Part shown: piece after piece, positions 9,384 to 61,632 of the stretch
Position numbering within the stretch: the first letter of the stretch is position 1
Layout: each line of letters starts with the position of its first letter
Assembly: GCF_004331955.1 (NCBI RefSeq)
Contig: NZ_CP036532.1
Span: 1,736,001 to 1,800,000 of the forward strand
DNA: 64,000 nt
Direction of reading: 5' to 3'
Source: Roseitalea porphyridii
GTDB taxonomy: Bacteria > Pseudomonadota > Alphaproteobacteria > Rhizobiales > Rhizobiaceae
Translations under genes and position numbers: made by a program
Notes under the pieces: generated by a model
What the model was told of the DNA's origin: nothing
What the model saw: only the letters and a program-made list of their open reading frames with translations
Databases searched by the model: none

Positions 9384-10988
9384 ATGAGCTACCAGACAGA
9401 AATCCAGACCGCGTCCGACCTGATCTCGGCGCAGGGGACGCCGTGGGACGGCATCAACGCCGAATATGTCGCCCGCATGCGGCTTCAGAACCGGTTCCGG
9501 ACCGGCCTCGACATTGCCCGCTACACGGCGAGGATCATGCGCCAGGACATGGCCGCCTACGACGCCGACCCCGCCAACTACACCCAGTCGCTGGGCTGCT
9601 GGCACGGTTTCATCGGCCAGCAGAAGATGATTTCCATCAAGAAGCACTTCGGCACGACCAAGGGCCGCTACCTCTATCTTTCGGGCTGGATGGTCGCCGC
9701 GCTGCGCTCCGAGTTCGGCCCGCTGCCCGACCAGTCCATGCACGAGAAGACCTCCGTGCCGGCACTGATCGAGGAACTCTACACGTTCCTCAGGCAGGCC
9801 GATGCGCGCGAGCTGGGCGGCCTGTTCCGGGAGCTCGACAAGGCGCGCGACGCCGGTGACGAGGTGACGGCGGCGGCCGTCCAGAAGAAGATCGACAATC
9901 ACGAGACGCACGTCGTGCCGATCATCGCCGACATCGACGCCGGCTTCGGCAACGAGGAAGCGACCTATCTGCTTGCCAGGAAGATGATCGAGGCGGGCGC
10001 CTGCGCCCTGCAGATCGAAAACCAGGTCTCGGACGAAAAGCAGTGCGGCCACCAGGACGGCAAGGTCACCGTGCCGCACGCCGATTTCCTCGCCAAGGTC
10101 CGCGCCTGCCGCTACGCCTTCCTCGAGTTGGGCGTCGATGACGGCATCATCGTCACGAGGACCGATTCGCTCGGCGCCGGCCTGACCAAGCAGATCGCGG
10201 TTTCCAACGAGCCCGGTGATCTCGGCGATCGGTACAACTCCTTCCTCGATTGCGAGGAGGTGTCGGAAGAGGAGATCGGCAACGGCGACGTGCTGATCCG
10301 CCAGGACGGCAAGCTGATGCGCCCGAAGCGCCTGCCGAGCGGCCTGTTCCAGTTCAGGAAGGGTTCGGGCGAGGATCGCGTCGTGCTCGACTGCATCACA
10401 TCGCTGCAGAACGGCGCCGATCTTCTTTGGATCGAGACCGAGAAGCCGCATATCGGCCAGATCGCGTCCATGGTGGACCGCATCCGCGCCGAGGTGCCGA
10501 ACGCCAAGCTGGTCTACAACAATTCGCCGTCCTTCAACTGGACGCTGAACTTCCGCCAGCAGGTTTATGACGCCTGGGTCGAGGCCGGAAAGGACGTCTC
10601 CAGCTACGACCGCGACCGGCTGATGAGCGTCGACTATGACGGATCGGATATTGCCGCCGAAGCCGACGAGCGCATCCGCACCTTCCAGGCGGACGCGGCG
10701 CGGCAGGCCGGCATCTTCCACCATCTGATCACGCTGCCGACCTACCACACGGCCGCCCTTTCGACCGACAATCTCGCCCGCGAATATTTCGGCGAGCAGG
10801 GCATGCTGGGCTACGTCAAGAACGTCCAGCGCGAGGAAATCCGCCAGACGATCGCCTGCGTCAAGCACCAGAACATGGCCGGCTCGGACATGGGCGACGA
10901 CCACAAGGAGTATTTCTCCGGCGAGGCGGCGCTGAAGGCCGGCGGCACCGAGAACACGATGAACCAGTTCGCCGTGCCGGCGGAGTGA
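9384..10988 (+). CDS. aceA: Isocitrate lyase (long, Pseudomonas-type form)
   Basis: Splits isocitrate to glyoxylate and succinate, the first step of the glyoxylate shunt. The 534-residue product belongs to the longer class of isocitrate lyases (about 530 residues) rather than the 430-residue E. coli class. The catalytic cysteine lies in EKQCGHQDG (Cys221), a class-specific variant of KKCGH. Metal-binding acidic stretches are visible in IADIDAGFGNEEA and the active-site segment in NNSPSFNW. ATG at 9384 has AAGGAG six bases upstream; an in-frame ATG at 9318 lacks one. Malate synthase is not nearby. The stop codon lies inside a strong hairpin. Confidence 0.96.
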   Translation: MSYQTEIQTASDLISAQGTPWDGINAEYVARMRLQNRFRTGLDIARYTARIMRQDMAAYDADPANYTQSLGCWHGFIGQQKMISIKKHFGTTKGRYLYLSGWMVAALRSEFGPLPDQSMHEKTSVPALIEELYTFLRQADARELGGLFRELDKARDAGDEVTAAAVQKKIDNHETHVVPIIADIDAGFGNEEATYLLARKMIEAGACALQIENQVSDEKQCGHQDGKVTVPHADFLAKVRACRYAFLELGVDDGIIVTRTDSLGAGLTKQIAVSNEPGDLGDRYNSFLDCEEVSEEEIGNGDVLIRQDGKLMRPKRLPSGLFQFRKGSGEDRVVLDCITSLQNGADLLWIETEKPHIGQIASMVDRIRAEVPNAKLVYNNSPSFNWTLNFRQQVYDAWVEAGKDVSSYDRDRLMSVDYDGSDIAAEADERIRTFQADAARQAGIFHHLITLPTYHTAALSTDNLAREYFGEQGMLGYVKNVQREEIRQTIACVKHQNMAGSDMGDDHKEYFSGEAALKAGGTENTMNQFAVPAE

Positions 10989-11024
10989 CGAACCAAGGGT
11001 GGCGGGCCAACCTTGGTTCGTCAC
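10985..11024. terminator. Hairpin overlapping the aceA stop codon
   Basis: GTGACGAACCAAGG (10985-10998) pairs perfectly with CCTTGGTTCGTCAC (11011-11024), a 14-bp stem with a 12-base loop. The left arm contains the aceA TGA. There is no T-run, so it may act as an mRNA 3' stabiliser or a weak terminator. Confidence 0.6.
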
Positions 11025-11152
11025 CCTCGGGCCTGACCCGAGGGTCCATTCCCTTCCGCTGCCTAAGCACGCCCGCTCTTCGTGAGCGGGCGCTTTTCGT
11101 TGGCATCACGGAATGGATCCTCGGCTCAAGGCCGAGGATGACGGCGGTGCCG
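11019..11152. repeat. Inverted pair of palindromic repeats around a terminator-like hairpin
   Basis: Two palindromic units face each other: CACCCTCGGGCCTGACCCGAGGGTC followed by CATTCC (about 11021-11053), and GGAATGG followed by ATCCTCGGCTCAAGGCCGAGGATGA (about 11110-11142). Units of this form recur widely in alphaproteobacterial genomes. Between them lies CGCCCGCTC-TTCGT-GAGCGGGCG (11070-11092), a 9-bp stem followed by CTTTTCGTT, which would serve as a rho-independent terminator for aceA. The second unit ends directly next to the duplicated gene end at 11153. Confidence 0.75.
11070..11100 (+). terminator. Rho-independent terminator downstream of aceA
   Basis: Nine-base perfect stem (11070-11078 with 11084-11092), loop TTCGT, then CTTTTCGT. 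It is the best terminator candidate for aceA transcription and sits between the two arms of the inverted repeat. Confidence 0.65.
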
Positions 11153-11206
11153 TCACCCCTCCAGGCGCTGCCCCAACCGCCCCGCCAGATCGGTGATAAA
11201 CTGCGA
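11153..11206 (-). pseudogene. Fragment: second copy of the 3' end of the DUF815 ATPase gene
   Basis: Read on the minus strand these 54 bases encode SQFITDLAGRLGQRLEG and a stop; the intact gene ends WQFITDLAGRLGTRLEG at 11477-11530. Fifteen of 17 residues agree, while many codons differ synonymously (TTC/TTT, GAC/GAT, CTG/TTG, GGA/GGG, CGG/CGC, TAG/TGA). No start codon or upstream domain remains, so it is a relic. It is flanked by palindromic repeats on both sides. Confidence 0.8.
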
Positions 11207-11476
11207 GCGCCGGTTCTCGTAGCGGGCGTTTCTCGGTTGCATCACGGAATGCAATGTCGACGGAAGACCGTGGATGGCGGGGAGGGGCGCGACACGCTTT
11301 TCCCTCTCCCCGCTCGGCGGGTAGAGGGATACGAGACCGCGCGAGCGATGCGAGCGCTGGTCGCAGTTGGGTGAGGGGCGCCGGTTTGACGTGTCGAGCG
11401 ATGGCGCCGCCCCTCATCCGTCCCCTCGCTGCGCTTGGGGCCACCTTCTCCCCGCACACGGGGAGAAGGGTTGGCG
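11207..11476. repeat. Repeat-filled spacer between the two copies of the ATPase 3' end
   Basis: Holds two copies of the rhizobial repeat: 11299-11380 (CCCTCTCCCCGCTCGGCGGG to GCAGTTGGGTGAGGGG) and 11405-11470 (GCCGCCCCTCATCC to TTCTCCCCGCACACGGGGAG). The second starts almost directly after the intact gene's stop codon. The first 90 bases contain GTTGCATCACGGAATG, echoing GGCATCACGGAATGG at 11102, so another partial palindromic unit is present. No gene is seen. Confidence 0.7.
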
Positions 11477-12352
11477 CTACCCCTCCAGCCGCGTTCCCAG
11501 CCGCCCCGCCAGGTCGGTGATGAACTGCCAGGCGACCCGCCCCGAACGGGCGCCGCGTGTCGTCGCCCATTCGAGCGCATCGCGGCGCAGTTCCTCGGGT
11601 TCCACATCGAGCCCGTAATGGGCGACATAGCCGTCGATCATCGCCAGATACTCGTCCTGCGAGCATTTGTGAAAGCCGAGCCACAGGCCGAACCGGTCCG
11701 ACAGCGACACCTTTTCCTCGACCGCTTCGGACGGATTGATCGCCGTCGACCGCTCGTTCTCGATCATGTCGCGCGGCAGCAGGTGCCGCCGGTTCGAGGT
11801 GGCATAGAAGATGACATTGTCCGGCCTGCCCTCGACGCCGCCGTCGAGCGCCGCCTTCAGCGACTTGTAGGACGTGTCGTCCTGGTCGAAGGACAGATCG
11901 TCGCAGAAGACGATGAAACGGAATGGCTCGGCCTTGATGCGGGTCAGGAGCCGGGGCAGGGCGTCGACATCCTCGCGGTGGATCTCGATCAGCTTGAGCG
12001 GCGGTTCGGCCCCGGCGGCGTTGATCGCCGCGTGAGCCGCCTTGACCAGCGAGGATTTGCCCATCCCGCGCGCGCCCCAAAGCAGCACATTGTTGGCCGG
12101 CAGCCCCCGTGCGAAGCGCTGCGTGTTGTCGACCAGGATGTCGCGGACCCGGTCGACGCCCTTGATCAGGCCGATGTCGATGCGATTGACCTTCGGCACG
12201 GCCGACAGATGGCCCTGATCCCAGATGAAACAGTCCGCCGCGGCAAGATCGGGGTCCGGCGGGGGTGGCGGCGCCAGCCGGTCGAGCGCGGCGACGAGCC
12301 TGTCCAGCCTGTCGCTCAGCGTGGTGGCGATGTCGGCATCGGTCCGGTTCAT
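11477..12352 (-). CDS. DUF815 family AAA+ ATPase
   Basis: A 291-residue P-loop ATPase. Walker A is WGARGMGKSS, Walker B is FRFIVFCDDLSF, and the sensor region reads VIFYATSNRRHL, all typical of the DUF815 (COG2607) family whose cellular role is unknown. The N-terminal 50 residues include a proline stretch (PPPPPDPD). ATG at 12352 has AGGA nine bases upstream. The gene is divergent from yajC-secDF, a placement I recall as frequent in rhizobia. Its 3' end exists again as a fragment at 11153-11206, with repeats in between. Confidence 0.9.
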   Translation of the reverse strand: MNRTDADIATTLSDRLDRLVAALDRLAPPPPPDPDLAAADCFIWDQGHLSAVPKVNRIDIGLIKGVDRVRDILVDNTQRFARGLPANNVLLWGARGMGKSSLVKAAHAAINAAGAEPPLKLIEIHREDVDALPRLLTRIKAEPFRFIVFCDDLSFDQDDTSYKSLKAALDGGVEGRPDNVIFYATSNRRHLLPRDMIENERSTAINPSEAVEEKVSLSDRFGLWLGFHKCSQDEYLAMIDGYVAHYGLDVEPEELRRDALEWATTRGARSGRVAWQFITDLAGRLGTRLEG

Positions 12353-12494
12353 GCGATCCTGTCGGGCTCGGCACCGGTCCGGCACGGCCGGCCGATTGTC
12401 CCCGGTTTCGGTTGCATCGGGGCTTTGCCTGACTATATTCGCGGCAAATTTCAAGGCCCGCTGCGGGCCGAACCGTTCCATGGAGTTCTGTTTG

Positions 12495-12845
12495 ATGTTT
12501 GTTTCACCGGCGTTCGCACAGGCTGGCGGCGCGGCCCAGGGGCCAAGCCTGATCATGAGCCTGCTGCCGTTCGTTCTGATCTTCGTGATCATGTATTTCC
12601 TGATCATCCGCCCGCAGCGCCAGCAGATGAAGAAGCGCGAGGAAATGCTCGCCGCGATCCGCCGCAACGACACCGTCGTCACCGGCGGCGGCGTCGTGGG
12701 CAAGGTGACCAAGGTGCACGAGGACGAGGGCGAACTGGAGGTCGAGATCGCGCAGGGCACCAAGGTGCGCGTGCTGCGCTCGATGGTCGCCGATGTGCGC
12801 GTGAAGGGCGAGCCGGTCGCGGCCAACGACGCCAAGAAGGGCTAG
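12495..12845 (+). CDS. yajC: Preprotein translocase subunit YajC
   Basis: A 116-residue single-span inner membrane protein that associates with SecDF. One membrane segment (LLPFVLIFVIMYFLII) is followed by the family hallmark RPQRQQMKKREEM and a small beta-rich cytoplasmic domain (VVTGGGVVGKVTKVHED). ATG at 12495 is chosen because GGAG lies nine bases upstream and rhizobial YajC proteins begin MFV.PAFAQ; an ATG at 12480 would add MEFCL. It is followed 115 bases later by secDF, so the two are probably co-transcribed. Confidence 0.95.
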   Translation: MFVSPAFAQAGGAAQGPSLIMSLLPFVLIFVIMYFLIIRPQRQQMKKREEMLAAIRRNDTVVTGGGVVGKVTKVHEDEGELEVEIAQGTKVRVLRSMVADVRVKGEPVAANDAKKG

Positions 12846-12959
12846 GGTCGGCGCCTGCGACGCGCCCCAGCGCGCGCGGACGACAACACGCCCCAATTTC
12901 GCCAGGCGGCGCCGGCAGGCAGGCCTTGGCCGACGGACAGTTTCGGGACATGATCTGAC

Positions 12960-15539
12960 ATGCTCTATTTCGCCCCCTGGAAGACGGTTCTGATCTGGCT
13001 GACGGTCGCGGTCGGCGTGCTGTTCGCGCTGCCGAACCTCTATCCGCAGTCGGTCCGCGACAGCCTTCCGGAGATCATCCCGAACGACACGCTGGCGCTC
13101 GGGCTCGACCTTCAGGGTGGCGTGCACCTGCAGCTCAGGCTCGACCGGCAGGATCTCGTCGAACAGCGGCTCGAAAGCGTCGCCGACGAAGTGCGCAGGG
13201 CGCTCAGGGCCGAAGGCATCGGCTACACCGGCCTGTCCGGTCGCGGCCAGCGGGTCAGCTTCACCCTGCGCGATCCGGCCGACGCGGAGGCCACGCGCGA
13301 GGCCCTTTCGGACCTGACGACGCCGATCCAGACCGGCGTCCTGACCGGCGGCACGGTGCGCGAGGTCACGATCGACGAGGGCGCCGATGGCCGTTTCGTG
13401 CTCGACATCACCGATCAGGGGCTCGACTACCGCATGGCGAGCGCGCTCAGCCAGACGGTCGAGGTCATTCGCGGCCGGATCGACGAACTGGGCACCACCG
13501 AACCGGTGATCCAGCGCCAGGGCGCCGATCGCATCATCGTGCAGGTGCCCGGGCTCGGCGATCCCGAGCGTCTCAAGGACCTGATCGGCACGACCGCGCG
13601 GCTGACCTTCCAGATGGTCGACACGACCGTTTCGACCGAGGAGGCGCTGCAGTCGCGCCCGCCGGTCGGCACCGAGCTTCTTTATTCGACCGACGATCCG
13701 CCCGTGCCCTATGTGCTCGAGACGCGCGAGATCGTCACCGGCGAGAACCTGGAGGACGCGCAGGCCGGCTTCGACCAGCGCACCAACGAGCCCATCGTCA
13801 CCTTCCGCTTCGACGGCACCGGCGCGCAGCGCTTCGGCCGCGCCACGCAGGAGAATGTCGGCCGTCCGTTCGCCATCGTGCTCGACGACCAGGTCATCTC
13901 CGCGCCGGTGATCCGCGAGCCGATCCTGGGTGGCTCGGGCCAGATATCAGGCAACTTCACGGTCGATGGCGCCAACGATCTCGCCATCCTGCTGCGCGCC
14001 GGCGCGCTGCCGCTCAAGCCGACCTTCGTCGAGGAGCGCACGGTCGGGCCCTCGCTTGGCGCCGATTCGATCGCGGCCGGCGAGATCGCCGGCATCATCG
14101 GCGCGATCCTCGTCGTCGGCTTCATGTTCGTCGCCTACGGCTTTCTCGGGCTGATCGCCAATCTGGCGCTGCTGATCAACATCACGCTGGTGATCGCGGC
14201 GCTCTCGGCGCTCGGCGCGACCCTCACATTGCCGGGCATCGCCGGCATCGTCCTGACGGTCGGCATGGCCGTCGATTCCAACGTGCTGATCTTCGAGCGC
14301 ATCCGCGAGGAACGGCTTGGCGGGCGAAGTCTGATCCAGGCGATCGACGCGGGCTTCCAGCGCGCCTTCACCACGATCGTCGACGCCAACGTGACCACGC
14401 TGATCGCCGCGATCATCCTGTTCTATCTCGGCTCCGGGCCGATCCGCGGCTTCGCGGTGACCCTTGCGATCGGTATCGTCACCACCGTCTTCACCGCGTT
14501 CATCCTGACGCGCTGGATGATGGCCTTCTGGTTGCGCCGCCGCAAACCCAAGGAACTGCCGCTCGGCCTTGGCAGGCATCTGCGCCCCGACACCCACATC
14601 AAGTTCATGTGGCTGCGCCGCTACAGCTTCACCCTGTCGGCGCTGGTCGTGGTCGCCTCGATGGCTTTGTTCGCCACGGTCAACATGAACCTTGGCATCG
14701 ATTTCAAGGGCGGCTCGCTGGTCGAGGTACAGGCGATCGAGGGCGAGGCCGACATCGGCGCCATCCGCACGGACCTTTCGGACCTCAATCTGGGCGACGT
14801 CCAGGTGCAGGGCTTCGGTGCGCCGAGCGACGCGCTGATACGCATCGAGAGCCAGGGCGGTGGCGACAATGCCGAGCAGAGCGCCATCGCCAAGGTGCGC
14901 GCCGTGCTCGAGGACGACTACAACATCCGCCGCGTCGAGGTTGTTGGGCCGACCGTCTCGGGCGAACTGGCGACCGCCGGCACCATCGCGGTTCTCGCCG
15001 CGCTCGCGGCGATCCTGATCTATATCTGGCTGCGGTTCGAGTGGCAGTTCGCGCTCGGCGCGATCATCGCCACCACGCACGACGTGCTTCTTACCATCGG
15101 CATGTTCGTGGTGACCGGGCTCGAATTCAACCTGTCGAGTATCGCGGCGATCCTGACCATCGTCGGCTATTCGCTGAACGACACCGTGGTCGTCTACGAC
15201 CGCGTGCGCGAGAATCTGCGACGATACAAGAAGATGCCGATTCCCGAGTTGCTCGACATGTCGATGAACCAGACATTGCCGCGCACCATCCTGACCTCGG
15301 TGACGACGCTTCTGGCGCTGCTGGCCCTGTTCTTCTTCGGCGGCGAGGTGCTTCGCTCGTTCGTCTCGGCGATGATCTTCGGCGTGGTGATCGGCACCTA
15401 TTCGTCGATCTTCATCGCGGCGCCGATCCTGATCATGTTCCGCCTGCGCCCCGGCGCCCTGTCGCAGGAGGACGACGAGGCGAAAAAGGAAAAGGCGGCG
15501 ACCGCCAACACCGCGCCCGTCGACATGGACACGGCTTAG
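12960..15539 (+). CDS. secDF: Protein translocase SecDF (fused SecD-SecF)
   Basis: An 859-residue fusion of SecD and SecF, the proton-driven accessory of SecYEG that pulls exported proteins through the membrane. The SecD half has an N-terminal span, LGLDLQGGVHLQL, the large periplasmic P1 domain and five spans including TLPGIAGIVLTVGMAVDSN. The SecF half starts near 545 with another span, then NLGIDFKGGSLVEVQ, and ends with spans containing SLNDTVVVYDRVREN. The fusion is usual in Rhizobiales, whereas most proteobacteria have two genes. The tail is acidic then lysine-rich and likely cytoplasmic. Confidence 0.97.
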   Translation: MLYFAPWKTVLIWLTVAVGVLFALPNLYPQSVRDSLPEIIPNDTLALGLDLQGGVHLQLRLDRQDLVEQRLESVADEVRRALRAEGIGYTGLSGRGQRVSFTLRDPADAEATREALSDLTTPIQTGVLTGGTVREVTIDEGADGRFVLDITDQGLDYRMASALSQTVEVIRGRIDELGTTEPVIQRQGADRIIVQVPGLGDPERLKDLIGTTARLTFQMVDTTVSTEEALQSRPPVGTELLYSTDDPPVPYVLETREIVTGENLEDAQAGFDQRTNEPIVTFRFDGTGAQRFGRATQENVGRPFAIVLDDQVISAPVIREPILGGSGQISGNFTVDGANDLAILLRAGALPLKPTFVEERTVGPSLGADSIAAGEIAGIIGAILVVGFMFVAYGFLGLIANLALLINITLVIAALSALGATLTLPGIAGIVLTVGMAVDSNVLIFERIREERLGGRSLIQAIDAGFQRAFTTIVDANVTTLIAAIILFYLGSGPIRGFAVTLAIGIVTTVFTAFILTRWMMAFWLRRRKPKELPLGLGRHLRPDTHIKFMWLRRYSFTLSALVVVASMALFATVNMNLGIDFKGGSLVEVQAIEGEADIGAIRTDLSDLNLGDVQVQGFGAPSDALIRIESQGGGDNAEQSAIAKVRAVLEDDYNIRRVEVVGPTVSGELATAGTIAVLAALAAILIYIWLRFEWQFALGAIIATTHDVLLTIGMFVVTGLEFNLSSIAAILTIVGYSLNDTVVVYDRVRENLRRYKKMPIPELLDMSMNQTLPRTILTSVTTLLALLALFFFGGEVLRSFVSAMIFGVVIGTYSSIFIAAPILIMFRLRPGALSQEDDEAKKEKAATANTAPVDMDTA

Positions 15540-15546
15540 GCGCGTC

Positions 15547-15960
15547 GTGGCCCACTCCATCCGCGCCGGCATCGAGATCCGCGATGCGCACTTTCCGGGC
15601 CGCGCGCCGATCGACGCTTACGGCAATGGCGGCTTCCGCTTCGCCGAGATGAGCCATCGCGGCTCGATCCTGGCGCTGCCATCGGGCATCTATGGCTGGG
15701 ATGCGGCGACCTTCGAGGACATCGACCTCACGCGCCTTGAGAAGGTGGTCGCCGACGCCGACGAGATCGAGGTGCTGCTGGTCGGCTGCGGGCCGGACCT
15801 GCGCGTGCTGCCGAAGGCGTTGCGCGACACGCTGCGCACCGAGCACGGCATCGTCACCGAGACGATGGCGACCGGTGCCGCCGTGCGCACCTTCAACGTG
15901 CTACTCGCCGAGGAACGCGCGGTGGCGGCGGCGCTGATCGCGGTGGAGGAGGCGCGCTGA
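15547..15960 (+). CDS. Mth938-domain protein (DUF498), NDUFAF3-like
   Basis: A 137-residue soluble protein of the Mth938 fold (PF04430). Family features seen: FRFAEMSHRGSILALPSGIYGW in the first half, EVLLVGCGPDLRVLP in the middle and the C-terminal TGAAVRTFNVLLAEERAVAAALI. The human member NDUFAF3 is a mitochondrial complex I assembly factor; the bacterial function is not established. It starts with GTG seven bases after the secDF stop, so it is coupled to export genes. The next gene resembles NDUFAF6, another complex I assembly factor. Its last 96 bases are found again at 16184-16279. Confidence 0.9.
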   Translation: MAHSIRAGIEIRDAHFPGRAPIDAYGNGGFRFAEMSHRGSILALPSGIYGWDAATFEDIDLTRLEKVVADADEIEVLLVGCGPDLRVLPKALRDTLRTEHGIVTETMATGAAVRTFNVLLAEERAVAAALIAVEEAR

Positions 15961-16183
15961 ACGCCTGAACCGGAGTTCTCCCAACTCGTTACGAATCGCT
16001 TGATTTCGCAGACGGACTGGACCCCAAAGCGCCGCACGGCGCCCCTTGCGCCGCGTCATTCCGGAACTTGTTTCCGGAATCCAGTGGCATCGACTTCGGC
16101 GCGGTTCGCAAACTGGCAACGGCGTGGCGTCGAAGAAGGCGCCGTGGATACCGGGATCAAGTCCCGGTATGACGGAGCCGGGC
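15961..16183. repeat. Spacer with an inverted pair of palindromic repeats
   Basis: CGTCATTCCGGAACTTG followed by TTTCCGGAATCCA (about 16054-16083) and TGGATACCGGGATCAAG followed by TCCCGGTATGACG (about 16144-16173) are two palindromic units facing each other, of the same general type as at 11019-11152. The outer bases GTCAT and ATGAC and the inner ATCCA and TGGAT match. About 90 bases before them show no repeat and no gene. Confidence 0.75.
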
Positions 16184-16279
16184 ATGGCGACCGGCGCCGC
16201 CGTATGCACCTTCAACGTGCTGCTCGCCGAGGAACGCGCCGTCGCCGCGGCGCTGATCGCGGTGGAGGAGGCGAGGTAG
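16184..16279 (+). pseudogene. Fragment: second copy of the 3' end of the Mth938-domain gene
   Basis: These 96 bases repeat the last 96 bases of the intact gene (15865-15960). They encode the same 31 C-terminal residues with one change (Arg to Cys in AVCTF). By eye 11 bases differ: one nonsynonymous, the rest in synonymous positions or the stop codon (TGA to TAG, and CGC to AGG both arginine). Homology stops exactly at the stop codon and at ATGGCGACC. The frame opens with ATG, but there is no ribosome site, so I treat it as a relic. Confidence 0.85.
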
Positions 16280-16575
16280 GGTGCACGCCGCCTCCCTCGC
16301 CCCGCTTGCGGGGAGAGGGATGTGAGGCTTGTGAGCGTAAGCGAACTAGCCGCAACTGGGTGAGGGGGCACTTCCCAAATAGCGGCCCCTCATCCAACTG
16401 CGACATCAACTCAGCTTCGCTTCGTTGTGTCTCGTATCCTTCTCCCCGCTCCGCAGGGAGAAGGAAGCCGCCGAACAACCGCCCCAGCCTGACCGATCAA
16501 GCAAGACGCACCGTCTGACGTCCGCTCAACCCCACCCCACTGGCCAACACCATCCACCGGTGCCATATCGGCCCC
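16280..16575. repeat. Two further rhizobial repeats before the NDUFAF6-like gene
   Basis: A first copy at about 16291-16368 runs from CCTCCCTCGCCCCGCTTGCG to CGCAACTGGGTGAGGGGG. A second, in the opposite orientation, at about 16384-16464 runs from GCCCCTCATCCAACTGCG to TCTCCCCGCTCCGCAGGGAG. The last 110 bases before the next ATG look unremarkable; no ribosome site stronger than GGCCCC is seen. Confidence 0.7.
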
Positions 16576-17415
16576 ATGGGCGATACCTCCGGCGATCTTC
16601 TGAACCAGCTGCGCGAGGCCGATCGCGAGCGCTACCTGTCGGTGCTTTTTGCGCCCGAGGGCCATCGTGCCGCGCTGGCGGCACTGTTCCTGTTCAACGC
16701 GGAGACAGCGCGGCTGCGCGACATCGTCTCCGAACCGCTGCCCGGCGAGATCCGCCTGCAATGGTGGCGAGAGGTGATCGACGGCGACCGCGCCGACGAG
16801 GCCGGCCAGCACCCCCTCGCAGCGCCGCTTCTGGAGACCATCAACCGCTATGACCTGCCTGCGACGGCCCTCGACAATCTGCTCGAAGCGCGCATCTTCG
16901 ATCTCTACGATGACCCGATGCCATCGCGCACCGATCTTGAGGGCTATCTCGGCGAGACCGCCTCGGCGCTGATCCAGATGGCCTGTCAGATCCTTGATGG
17001 CGGCGCGGCGCCGCCGACGGCCGATGCGGCCGGCCATGCCGGCGTCGCCTACGGCATCGCCAACCTGATCCGACAGATGCCGGTGCACCGCGCGCGCGGG
17101 CAGGTCTATCTGCCCGCCGACCTGCTCGCCGCCGCCGGCACGGATTCGGGCGGCTGGCTGGCCGAGGCCGACGATCCGGCGCATGGGCGTGCCGTCAGCG
17201 CCTTCATCGCCCTCGGCCGCGACCATCTTGCGCGCGCCGACAGGGCGCTGGCCGAGGTGCCCAAGCCGCTGCGTTCGCCGTTCGCCGTGCTCGGTGTCGC
17301 GCGTGCCGTCTTCGCGCGCGCGGACAAGGCCGGGGGCAGGTCGCGCACCACGCCCGTTGCGCTCTCGCCGGTGACCGTGCAGTGGGCGATGACCCGCCGC
17401 GCGTTCGGTTTCTGA
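16576..17415 (+). CDS. Squalene/phytoene synthase family protein, NDUFAF6-like pseudo-enzyme
   Basis: A 279-residue, mostly helical protein of the trans-isoprenyl diphosphate synthase head-to-head family. The Asp-rich substrate motifs needed for catalysis are not intact. The first region reads LFNAETARLRDIV instead of a DxxxD pattern, and the second reads YGIANLIRQMPVHRARGQVYLP where enzymes have RDVxED before GRxYLP. This matches the NDUFAF6-type subgroup that assists complex I assembly in mitochondria. No carotenoid or hopanoid genes are nearby. It follows the NDUFAF3-like gene after a 615-base repeat-filled gap, so it may have its own promoter. Confidence 0.85.
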   Translation: MGDTSGDLLNQLREADRERYLSVLFAPEGHRAALAALFLFNAETARLRDIVSEPLPGEIRLQWWREVIDGDRADEAGQHPLAAPLLETINRYDLPATALDNLLEARIFDLYDDPMPSRTDLEGYLGETASALIQMACQILDGGAAPPTADAAGHAGVAYGIANLIRQMPVHRARGQVYLPADLLAAAGTDSGGWLAEADDPAHGRAVSAFIALGRDHLARADRALAEVPKPLRSPFAVLGVARAVFARADKAGGRSRTTPVALSPVTVQWAMTRRAFGF

Positions 17416-58917: not shown

Positions 58918-61632
58918 GTGGCGGGTCCGGGTGAGACAACGACCAGGAAGCGACGTGGCTGGGAACCGGTAGCGGACGAGACCGCCGCACCGGCCGAATG
59001 CCGCGCGTTCCTGCATGCGCCTGCAATTCCGAAGAGACCGACATCGGCTGAAAAACGCGCCGAGCGCACGGCCGCCGAAATCCCGGCGCCTGCACCGGCC
59101 GCACCGTCTCCGCGCGCCCGCCCGCGCCTTCAGGCCCTGCGCGCGCGATGGACGGCGCATCTGGCGCGCGCGCTCGACGACGAGGCGGCGTTCGGCACGC
59201 CTTTCCTGCTCGTCCCGGTCCTGCTGCTCGTCGGCGTCGCAGGCTATTTCGCGCTGCCGGCCGAACCGGCGGCCCACAATTTGCCGCTGGCGCTGGGCTT
59301 TTGTGCCTTGCTGTGGCACATCGCCCGGTCACGCTCGCGACCGGTTGCGCGGGTGCTGCTGACGGGCGTGCTGCTGCTCGCCGGCATGGCGCTGGCGCAA
59401 TGGCACACCATGGCACAGGCGACGCAGATGCTCGGCGCGGAAGTCACCACCCATCTGACCGGCCGGATCGTGCGCATGGAGCAGCGGCCCGACGGGTCGG
59501 TCCGCTACACGCTCGATGTGCTGGCGACCGAGCGGCCGCGGCTTCGGCACGTGCCCGACCGGCTGCGCGTGACCGCCCGCGTCCCGGTAAGCGACGTGCG
59601 CGCGGGCGACGGACTGAAAGGGGTCGCGCGGCTGTTCCCGCTGTCCGGTCCGGCCCGGCCGGGCGGCTACGATTTCACATTTCACGGCTATTTCGCCGGC
59701 CATGGCGCCAACGGCTTCTTCTACGGCGCGCCGGAAAAGGTCGCCGCGCCACCGCCGGACGGTTGGCGCGCGGCCGTCGCGGCACGGCTGCAGAACGCCC
59801 GGCTGTGGCTCGGCCAACGCATCCGCGCGGCCGCGCCCGGCGAAGCCGGCACGGTCGCCGCCGCGCTCGTCAATGGCGACAAGTCGGCGATCCCCGAACC
59901 GGTCAACGAGGCGCTGCGCATCTCCGGCCTTGCGCACATTCTGACAATATCTGGCCTTCATATGGCCCTCGTCGCCGGCACGGTGATGATCGGGCTGCGG
60001 GCGGGCCTTGCCCTGTCGGGTCCGCTGGTGGCCGGACACGCGGTCAAGAAGCATGCGGCGCTCGTAGCGCTGGCGGCGATCTTCGTCTATCTGTTCATGG
60101 CCGGGGCGGGCGTCGCCACGCAGCGCTCCTTCACCATGCTGGCGGTGATGCTCGCGGCGCTGCTGCTCGACCGGCGCGCCATATCCAAACGCAACCTGGC
60201 GATCGCGGCGATCGTCATCATCGCGCTGCATCCGGCCGCCGTCGTCGGGCCCAGCTTCCACATGTCGTTTGCGGCGACGCTCGCCCTGATCGCGCTCTAC
60301 GACCTCTGGAACCGCCGCCGCGCAGAGCGGGCAAGCCGAAGCCCGGCGAAACCGCGGCCCGAGGGGATCGCGGCCGCCGGCAGTGGCGCGTTTCGCTTCT
60401 TCGTCGCGCTCGCCGCCACATCGCTGGTCGCCGGCGCGGCGAGCGGGCTCTATGCCGCCTACCACTTCCAGCGCGTCGCCGTTCTGGGCCTCGTGACGAA
60501 CCTTGCGGCGATGCCGATCGTCTCGCTGATCACCATGCCGCTGGCGATCCTGGCGACGCTGGCCATACCGTTCGGTGTCGATGGCCCGCTCTACGCGATG
60601 ATGGCGGCCAGCGCGGGCTGGATCCTCGCCATAGCCCAATGGGTCGCCGCCCGTTCGCCGGACGGCATGGTCGGCGCCATGTCGAACGCGGCGATGCTGT
60701 GGGCGACGGCCGCCATGGTCTGGTTTTGCGTGTGCCGCACGTGGCTGCGCTGGGGCGCGGTGCTGCCGGCGCTGGCCGCGACGATGTTCATGGGCCAGCG
60801 CGACCTGCCCCTGGCGGTGATCTCCGAGGACGGCCGCCAGATGGCCGTCGTCGGCACCAGCGGCGCACTCGCCGTGAACAGGGCGCGGCCGAACGCGTTC
60901 ATCGTCGAGCAATGGCAGCAGGCCTATGCGGCGCGGACGGTGATCAAGCCGGTTGGTCTGGAAGACGGTGTTGCAGAATGGGTGCTCCCGGACGCGGCAG
61001 CGGCGGTTCCTGCGCATCGCGCGGCCGATGCCGAGCCGGGCGGTCGCCGCGCGCAAGGCGCCGACCCTGTCGCCCCGATGCGCTGCGCCGAACAAATCTG
61101 CATCGCGACGGTCTGGCGCGGCGCCGAGCGATACGATCTTGTGATCCTGTCAGCGCCTTTTCCAGACGGTCCCACGAACGCGACGGCGGAGACCGGTGGG
61201 TTGAAGGCTATCGATGCAGAGGCCCATGACGGCGGCCACCACCACGCGTCCGTCCTCTGCGGGCGGTTCGATCTGATCGTTCTCGCCTACGCGCCGGCGG
61301 AGTCACCCTGCGACGACGGAACGCTCGTGCTCACGGCACGGGATCTGGCGTTCGCCGGCAGTGCGGAGATCAGACCTGCGCCGCGGGGTCGTCTGCGAAC
61401 TCGGGAAAATGGAACGGCACCCGACCCGCCGCATGAAACAAGGCTTTCGCAGGAAACCGCACCGCAGACCCGGTCCGAATCGGAACGCTTGGAGGCCGAG
61501 GCGGGGACCGCAAAGAAGAGTGGCGCGGTTTCGCCAAGGCTCGCCGTCCGCCACGCCGTCTCGACGCCGTTGCGCCCCTGGCATGACGCTCGCCGCTGGA
61601 GCCGGGCCGCGCGCAATCTGGCACCCTATTGA
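58918..61632 (+). CDS. comEC: ComEC/Rec2-family competence protein
   Basis: A 904-residue polytopic membrane protein. The N-terminal 80 residues are an Ala/Pro/Arg-rich cytoplasmic tail, followed by an OB-like DUF4131 domain and the Competence domain with ISGLAHILTISGLHMALVAG. There are about 10 membrane spans. Unlike the Bacillus protein, no metallo-beta-lactamase HxHxDH motif is visible; the C-terminal 250 residues are hydrophilic and poorly conserved (RAADAEPGGRRAQGADPVAP). It would carry single-stranded DNA across the inner membrane. GTG at 58918 is the start. Confidence 0.9.
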   Translation: MAGPGETTTRKRRGWEPVADETAAPAECRAFLHAPAIPKRPTSAEKRAERTAAEIPAPAPAAPSPRARPRLQALRARWTAHLARALDDEAAFGTPFLLVPVLLLVGVAGYFALPAEPAAHNLPLALGFCALLWHIARSRSRPVARVLLTGVLLLAGMALAQWHTMAQATQMLGAEVTTHLTGRIVRMEQRPDGSVRYTLDVLATERPRLRHVPDRLRVTARVPVSDVRAGDGLKGVARLFPLSGPARPGGYDFTFHGYFAGHGANGFFYGAPEKVAAPPPDGWRAAVAARLQNARLWLGQRIRAAAPGEAGTVAAALVNGDKSAIPEPVNEALRISGLAHILTISGLHMALVAGTVMIGLRAGLALSGPLVAGHAVKKHAALVALAAIFVYLFMAGAGVATQRSFTMLAVMLAALLLDRRAISKRNLAIAAIVIIALHPAAVVGPSFHMSFAATLALIALYDLWNRRRAERASRSPAKPRPEGIAAAGSGAFRFFVALAATSLVAGAASGLYAAYHFQRVAVLGLVTNLAAMPIVSLITMPLAILATLAIPFGVDGPLYAMMAASAGWILAIAQWVAARSPDGMVGAMSNAAMLWATAAMVWFCVCRTWLRWGAVLPALAATMFMGQRDLPLAVISEDGRQMAVVGTSGALAVNRARPNAFIVEQWQQAYAARTVIKPVGLEDGVAEWVLPDAAAAVPAHRAADAEPGGRRAQGADPVAPMRCAEQICIATVWRGAERYDLVILSAPFPDGPTNATAETGGLKAIDAEAHDGGHHHASVLCGRFDLIVLAYAPAESPCDDGTLVLTARDLAFAGSAEIRPAPRGRLRTRENGTAPDPPHETRLSQETAPQTRSESERLEAEAGTAKKSGAVSPRLAVRHAVSTPLRPWHDARRWSRAARNLAPY

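What the first reader, a model, noticed from the sequence alone, without database searches (positions are those of the whole stretch)
15865..16279. The 3' end of the Mth938-domain gene exists twice, separated by palindromic repeats, with synonymous divergence
The last 96 bases of the gene (15865-15960) recur at 16184-16279, ending exactly at the stop codon. By eye 11 bases differ but only one amino acid of 31 changes. A simple duplication of a non-coding relic should accumulate changes at all codon positions; synonymous-only differences mean both copies evolved as coding sequence, probably in different lineages. The simplest model is an incoming allele that replaced the gene's 3' part by recombination while the old end stayed behind. 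A repeat pair (16054-16173) fills the gap.
Basis: partly seen in the sequence, partly recalled or inferred. Interest (0 to 1): 0.68.

Follow-up and report, generated by a model that had tools for sequence, protein, structure and literature searches.

The report
Leftover gene ends bracket swapped DNA
The spare gene end is best read as an old allele's tail left behind when about 5,000 bases from a related bacterium replaced the resident genes; a second leftover tail marks the other edge, so both borders of one DNA exchange appear to be preserved.

Summary
15865-15960 recurs at 16184-16279 with 11 of 96 bases different and one of 31 residues changed. Copy 2 is continuous with the 3' flank of the same gene in relative G003, so it is the resident gene end. 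Copy 1, attached to the gene body, came in. Only the window's genome, of 61 searched, has a second tail.

A second scar lies 4.7 kb to the left: the DUF815 ATPase gene (minus strand, stop at 11477) has its 3' end repeated at 11153-11206, next to a repeated aceA flank. The two relics bracket 11204-16183. The simplest account is one replacement of about 5 kb, joined non-homologously at both ends. Two one-sided events remain possible.

A third displaced end lies near 2,531,800. The genome encodes Ku and LigD and a gene-transfer-agent cluster, which suggests a route but proves none. The donor was not found, and sister grouping of the copies is not formally rejected (p-AU 0.088). It is a well-preserved example of a known kind.

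The parts
15547..15960 (+). Mth938/DUF498-type gene (137 aa); gene body plus tail copy 1 (inferred incoming allele)
   Evidence: PF04430 E 4e-29; matches in 59 of 61 genomes
15865..15960 (+). tail copy 1, in the complete gene, stop TGA
15961..16053 (.). intergenic stretch inferred to have come in with copy 1; no match outside the own genome covers 15961-16024 among 297 family genomes (at most 2 candidates scored per genome)
16054..16174 (.). pair of inverted palindromic (REP-like) units, 16054-16083 and 16145-16174; the same unit occurs elsewhere in the genome, in 5 doublets at 47-49 base spacing within 864 kb scanned
   Evidence: DNA fold z -3.58
16175..16183 (.). right junction: bases after the repeat, joined to the resident gene at ATGGCG
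16184..16279 (+). tail copy 2: displaced resident gene end, stop TAG
16280..16575 (.). resident 3' flank with a dispersed repeat at about 16293-16474; orthologous to the G003 flank
11477..12391 (-). DUF815 ATPase gene (start codon uncertain); tail at 11477-11530, stop TAG
   Evidence: PF05673 E 2e-106
11153..11206 (-). second relic: extra 3' end of the DUF815 gene, stop TGA, one aa change in 16 past the boundary codon
11085..11144 (.). first copy of the aceA downstream flank (terminator-like hairpin plus REP), inferred resident
   Evidence: similar stretch next to aceA in G004
11221..11280 (.). second copy of the same aceA flank (77% identical), inferred incoming
11297..11476 (.). DUF815 3' flank attached to the complete gene, inferred incoming; 88% identical to G001 at the same place (11297-11539)
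11204..16183 (.). inferred incoming block, about 4,980 bp (DUF815, yajC-like by eye, secDF, Mth938-type gene); the left edge is uncertain by a few bases
   Evidence: inference

Best explanation
A linear piece of about 5 kb of homologous DNA from a related lineage (11204-16183) replaced the resident copy of the same genes but was joined to the chromosome out of register at both ends. The resident sequence was cut 96 bases before the end of the Mth938-type gene on the right and about 50 bases before the end of the DUF815 gene on the left. The incoming piece ran past both gene ends into its own intergenic DNA. Each complete gene is therefore incoming, while the resident's last codons remain outside as relics with the resident stop codon and flank. 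Shown: both relics, their reading frames, the orthology of the right-hand flank, the repeated flank on the left, and (by eye) few or no shared bases at the joins. Inferred: that one event made both scars, that the inside is the incoming part, and the route. Homology-anchored illegitimate recombination after DNA uptake is the default route; Ku/LigD end joining, possibly of a GTA-delivered fragment, I put at about 0.2.
For: Copy 2 and its flank align to G003 as one block. The relic copy of both tails is nearest G002 (6 of 96 and 5 of 51 differences), nearer than to the gene's own end (11 of 96 and 9 of 51). In the joint tree relic + G002 has support 89/87. The DUF815 relic shares G002's TGA stop and Q codon. 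At the left edge the order is flank, relic, second flank copy, complete gene, with the aceA flank itself present twice. A flank like the relic's occurs in G004 and one like the complete gene's in G001. Scans of 1.264 Mb of this genome gave three clear relics, two of them facing outward within 5 kb of each other. The third shows the same order.
Against: Site patterns inside and outside the block do not differ significantly (chi-square p 0.115), so no donor lineage is visible; the one region that stands out there is phytoene synthase, outside the block. Grouping of the two copies is not formally rejected (p-AU 0.284, 0.051, 0.088; neither supported branch is starred), and one site (position 54, C in both copies, G in the four congeners) favours them as sisters. 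At the DUF815 end both flanks have counterparts in congeners (G004 for the relic's, G001 and partly G003 for the gene's), so which side is resident there rests on the bracket model. The second aceA-flank copy also resembles G004. The tails are short (96 and 51 bases). One fragment with two illegitimate joins is mechanistically rarer than one join plus homologous recombination.
Confidence: 0.6

Rival explanations
1. Two independent one-sided events (homology-facilitated illegitimate recombination): each had a homologous crossover somewhere inside the block and one illegitimate join at a gene end, one leaving the DUF815 relic and one the Mth938 relic.
For: This mechanism is documented and needs one illegitimate join per event (PMC3240628 abstract; PMC2884548 passages). 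A third, apparently one-sided scar exists elsewhere. The spacer behind the Mth938-type gene holds different inserts in congeners, so the locus may be a hotspot.
Confidence: 0.27
2. Site-specific integration into the gene's 3' end, as prophage e14 does in icd, followed by loss of the element. Copy 1 would be the element-borne end and copy 2 the displaced end.
For: e14 left a 165-base copy with 12 base changes and two residue changes (PMC11148124 passages), the same signature. At the differing sites G002 matches copy 1 in the first 38 bases (3 of 3) and copy 2 afterwards (7 of 8), as a crossover inside the tail would give.
Against: The gap is 223 bases, and at the DUF815 scar 270; neither leaves room for an integrase. 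It would need two decayed elements at two genes, and it does not explain the second copy of the aceA flank.
Confidence: 0.07
3. Local tandem duplication within the genome followed by divergence.
For: Copies lie in direct orientation 319 bases apart, share one private base (position 54), and sister grouping is not rejected.
Against: The sequences after the two copies are not alike. Copy 2 is closer to another species than to copy 1. Changes respect codons (0.017% by chance). The stop codon and one codon of the DUF815 relic match G002.
Confidence: 0.06

Closest known systems
Homology-facilitated illegitimate recombination (HFIR), and double illegitimate recombination in Acinetobacter (the latter seen only as a reference title)
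   Same: Incoming linear DNA with homology, non-homologous join, resident sequence partly kept
   Different: Here both edges seem illegitimate and the outcome replaces core housekeeping genes by their own allele; natural, not selected in the laboratory
Displaced T6SS immunity genes in Vibrio, and Rhs C-terminal displacement as cited there (PMC5361080, passages)
   Same: Old 3' part left downstream of an incoming module; HFIR is the mechanism proposed there
   Different: Those are effector-immunity arrays thought to be selected; these relics look like non-functional ends of core genes
e14 prophage in icd (PMC11148124, passages)
   Same: Duplicated 3' end with mostly synonymous differences, displaced original end
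   Different: No integrase or element between the copies here
REP/REPIN-like palindromic doublets (label recalled, no family search made)
   Same: Two inverted palindromic units, dispersed in the genome
   Different: Wider spacing (91 instead of 47-49); they look like passengers in the incoming flank, not the agent

Membership tests
Illegitimate allelic replacement (HFIR / double illegitimate) | Resident remnant adjoining incoming homologous DNA in direct order | tested here: met
   Right: relic with resident flank. Left: relic and repeated flank, resident side there inferred
Illegitimate allelic replacement (HFIR / double illegitimate) | Join without long homology | tested here: met
   No similarity across 16175-16183 to the gene upstream of ATGGCG; the left join shares 0-2 bases; both read by eye
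Illegitimate allelic replacement (HFIR / double illegitimate) | Homologous crossover on the other side (HFIR proper) | tested here: inconclusive
   No ancestry change visible inside the block
Illegitimate allelic replacement (HFIR / double illegitimate) | Donor lineage identified | tested here: not met
   No match outside the own genome covers 15961-16024 in 297 genomes, at most 2 candidates scored each
Site-specific integration into a gene 3' end | Integrase gene or element between the two ends | tested here: not met
   The gap is only 223 bases; the gap ORF 16046-16279 hits only PF04430
Tandem duplication | Duplicated unit includes the same downstream sequence | tested here: not met
   Downstream sequences differ directly after the stop codons
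REPIN-like doublet | Two inverted palindromic units repeated in the genome | tested here: met
REPIN-like doublet | RAYT transposase in the genome | not tested
   no search made
Ku/LigD end joining | Ku and LigD genes present | tested here: met
   Ku in 2 of 5 genus genomes including this one; LigD with phosphoesterase, ligase and polymerase domains next to it
Ku/LigD end joining | Scars depend on Ku | tested here: inconclusive
   Too few: 3 clear relics in 1.264 Mb here; none clear in 0.4 Mb of Ku-less G002; none clear but one unresolved 545-base repeat in 0.4 Mb of Ku-bearing G003
Gene transfer agent delivery | RcGTA-like cluster present | tested here: met
   GTA_TIM in 5 of 5 genus genomes; terminase, portal, capsid and baseplate genes beside it in this genome
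Gene transfer agent delivery | Particles made and DNA transferred | not testable with these tools
   needs experiment

The most novel reading that the evidence does not exclude
The block is a single fragment delivered by a gene transfer agent (RcGTA packages about 4 kb; this block is about 5 kb) and sealed at both ends by Ku/LigD end joining. That would make gene-end relics a genome-wide record of end-joined DNA exchange between congeners in Ku-bearing alphaproteobacteria.
Probability: 0.12. Interest if true: 0.75.

Novelty: new variant of a known kind. Interest (0 to 1): 0.42.

Why it matters
Homologous replacement of core genes normally leaves no physical mark, so fragment ends are inferred statistically. 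Leftover gene ends would give exact borders, fragment length and join chemistry for a natural exchange, without needing the donor. If such scars can be counted by genome (three clear ones in about a third of this one), the contribution of end joining to gene exchange becomes testable by comparing Ku-bearing with Ku-less relatives.

Tried and rejected
Donor search by DNA: no match outside the own genome covered 15961-16024 in 297 family genomes. Ancestry step at the borders: none visible in 500-base windows or in site-pattern counts (p 0.115). Full small gene for copy 2: rejected. RNA family in 10900-16700: none of 4227 families reached the gathering score. REP pair as the agent: the same doublets occur elsewhere in this genome, so I treat them as passengers; I did not check those sites one by one for gene-end copies. 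Ku-scar correlation: too few scars to judge.

Papers: a search for remnant-type wording found no paper (5 terms, at least 4 required). I make no claim that two-sided scars are absent from print beyond searches. Hulter and Wackernagel 2008 on double illegitimate recombination and Dupuy 2019 on NHEJ and heterologous DNA were seen only as reference titles.

Errors and limits: one tail was misaligned (34 of 53 differences); one search replaces it. The gene sets (607 non-overlapping ORFs; 2577 ORFs; 1253 in G000, 1232 in G002, 1204 in G003) are mechanical, so relics will be missed: one search missed the DUF815 one and the third one. Rows set aside by eye: repeat elements, tandem paralogues, repeat proteins, wrong-frame matches. 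Not resolved: a 60-base pair near G000 798106, a 545-base 82% direct repeat in G003 contig 33 near 93963, a 31-base match behind a GroEL-like gene in G002, and several short matches that I did not examine.

Full report
Observation. The 96 bases 15865-15960, the end of a 137-residue gene of the DUF498 family (PF04430), recur at 16184-16279. Eleven bases differ, one of 31 residues changes, and the two stop codons differ. Random placement of the nine coding differences gives at most one residue change in 0.017% of trials. Both copies therefore diverged, for the most part, while translated.

Which copy is native. The window lies in an unnamed 3.54-Mb genome; four other genomes of its genus are held. 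Equal contig lengths link G002 to Oceaniradius stylonematis and G001 to a Roseitalea MAG. In G003, gene end, intergenic repeat and phytoene-synthase gene align to 16184-17385 as one block (alignment). Copy 2 is thus the resident end in its resident context, and copy 1 belongs to the gene body. Of 61 genomes searched, 59 have the gene. Only the window's genome has an extra C-terminal piece; G058 also shows two matches, but they cover successive parts of the query on one contig. Distances out of 96: copy 1 to copy 2, 11; copy 1 to G002, 9; copy 2 to G002, 6. Copy 2's R to C change is private among these sequences, as expected for a relic freed from selection.

The second scar. A scan for local repeats found another pair in the same window, 11155-11207 and 11479-11531. 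It is the 3' end of the DUF815 ATPase gene (PF05673), which runs on the minus strand to a stop at 11477. The relic (11153-11206) reads SQFITDLAGRLGQRLEG-stop against WQFITDLAGRLGTRLEG-stop. Past the boundary codon, 7 of 48 coding bases and one of 16 residues differ; chance of at most one residue change is 0.26%. The relic carries the TGA stop and the Q codon of G002. Distances out of 51: relic to gene, 9; relic to G002, 5; gene to G002, 8; gene to G003, 6. Beside it the aceA downstream flank also occurs twice, 11085-11144 and 11221-11280, 77% alike. G004 has a similar stretch next to aceA. The flank attached to the complete gene is 88% identical to G001 at the same place (11297-11539). The order is flank, relic, second flank copy, complete gene. 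Here both flanks have counterparts in congeners, so which side is resident is inferred from the right-hand scar and the bracket.

One block. The two relics face outward and bracket 11204-16183: DUF815, a yajC-like gene (by eye), secDF and the Mth938-type gene. The simplest reading is one incoming fragment of about 4,980 bases that overlapped, at both edges, the resident sequence left in place. The joins share few or no bases (read by eye). Two separate one-sided events would give the same picture. Against them stands the rarity of relics: three clear ones in 1.264 Mb of this genome, by repeat scans and scans of mechanical ORFs. Scans of 0.4 Mb of G002 and 0.4 Mb of G003 gave none that I judged clear; a 545-base direct repeat in G003, 82% alike, is unresolved.

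The third scar. Near 2,531,800 a peptidase-like gene (name by eye, not family-searched) has an altered end. The end shared by G001, G002 and G004 sits about 0.5 kb downstream, right before the next gene. In those three of the four congeners the matches to the two genes adjoin directly; G003 matches only the second gene there. This is the same architecture with an unrelated gene.

What speaks against. Identity in 500-base windows shows no step at the borders. Site patterns inside and outside the block do not differ significantly (p 0.115); phytoene synthase, outside, shares more sites with G003 than the other regions do. The tails are short: holding the two copies together costs 4.7 log units with p-AU 0.088 for both tails joined, 0.284 and 0.051 for each. 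One private shared base unites them. The donor may be a lineage of the same branch as the recipient, about as distant as the known congeners.

Route. The genome has Ku beside a LigD with phosphoesterase, ligase and polymerase domains. G003 has Ku too; none was found in G001, G002 or G004. All five have the GTA_TIM gene of RcGTA-type clusters, with terminase, portal, capsid and baseplate genes beside it in this genome, and a ComEC-type gene (PF03772). RcGTA packages about 4 kb (PMC9662315, passage). These are compatible with a GTA- or uptake-delivered fragment sealed by end joining, but none is evidence that it happened so.

Known kinds. Homology-facilitated illegitimate recombination is documented (PMC3240628 abstract; PMC2884548 passages) and has been invoked for displaced immunity genes in Vibrio (PMC5361080 passages). 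The e14/icd case shows the same synonymous signature by integration of a prophage (PMC11148124 passages), but no integrase fits in these gaps. The case here is a two-sided, core-gene version of a known kind.

Noticed in passing
G000 about 2531741-2532320 (L183:11741-12320): Third displaced gene end: peptidase-like gene with a new C-terminus, and the native-type end left before the next gene after about 0.5 kb of insert.
   Followed up: partly
window about 16293-16474 and 11302-11470: Dispersed repeat of roughly 170-180 bases with palindromic ends, at gene ends; matches to one or the other copy in all 5 genus genomes searched.
   Followed up: partly
window 15961-16575 and the same spacer in G002, G003, G004: The spacer between the Mth938-type and phytoene-synthase genes is about 0.6, 2.9, 0.3 and 0.6 kb in G000, G002, G003 and G004 (the two genes lie on different contigs in G001), against mostly about 14-150 bases in other genera whose coordinates I compared by eye. 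It looks like an insertion hotspot.
   Followed up: partly
G000 583784-584317 (L161:3433-4353 Ku, L161:907-3429 LigD): Ku and LigD pair in this genome; Ku also in G003, none found in three congeners.
   Followed up: partly
G000 about 472516-473006 (joined L152-L171 position 72516-73006): Tandem repeats of 140-base period overlapping and following the end of a GroEL-like gene (by eye); the gene's last 17-21 bases recur in the units.
   Followed up: no
G003 contig 33, about 93963-95082: Direct repeat of 545 bases, 82% alike, 575 bases apart: gene-end scar or tandem duplication, not resolved.
   Followed up: no
window 59866-60741: ComEC/competence-domain gene lies in the same window.
   Followed up: no
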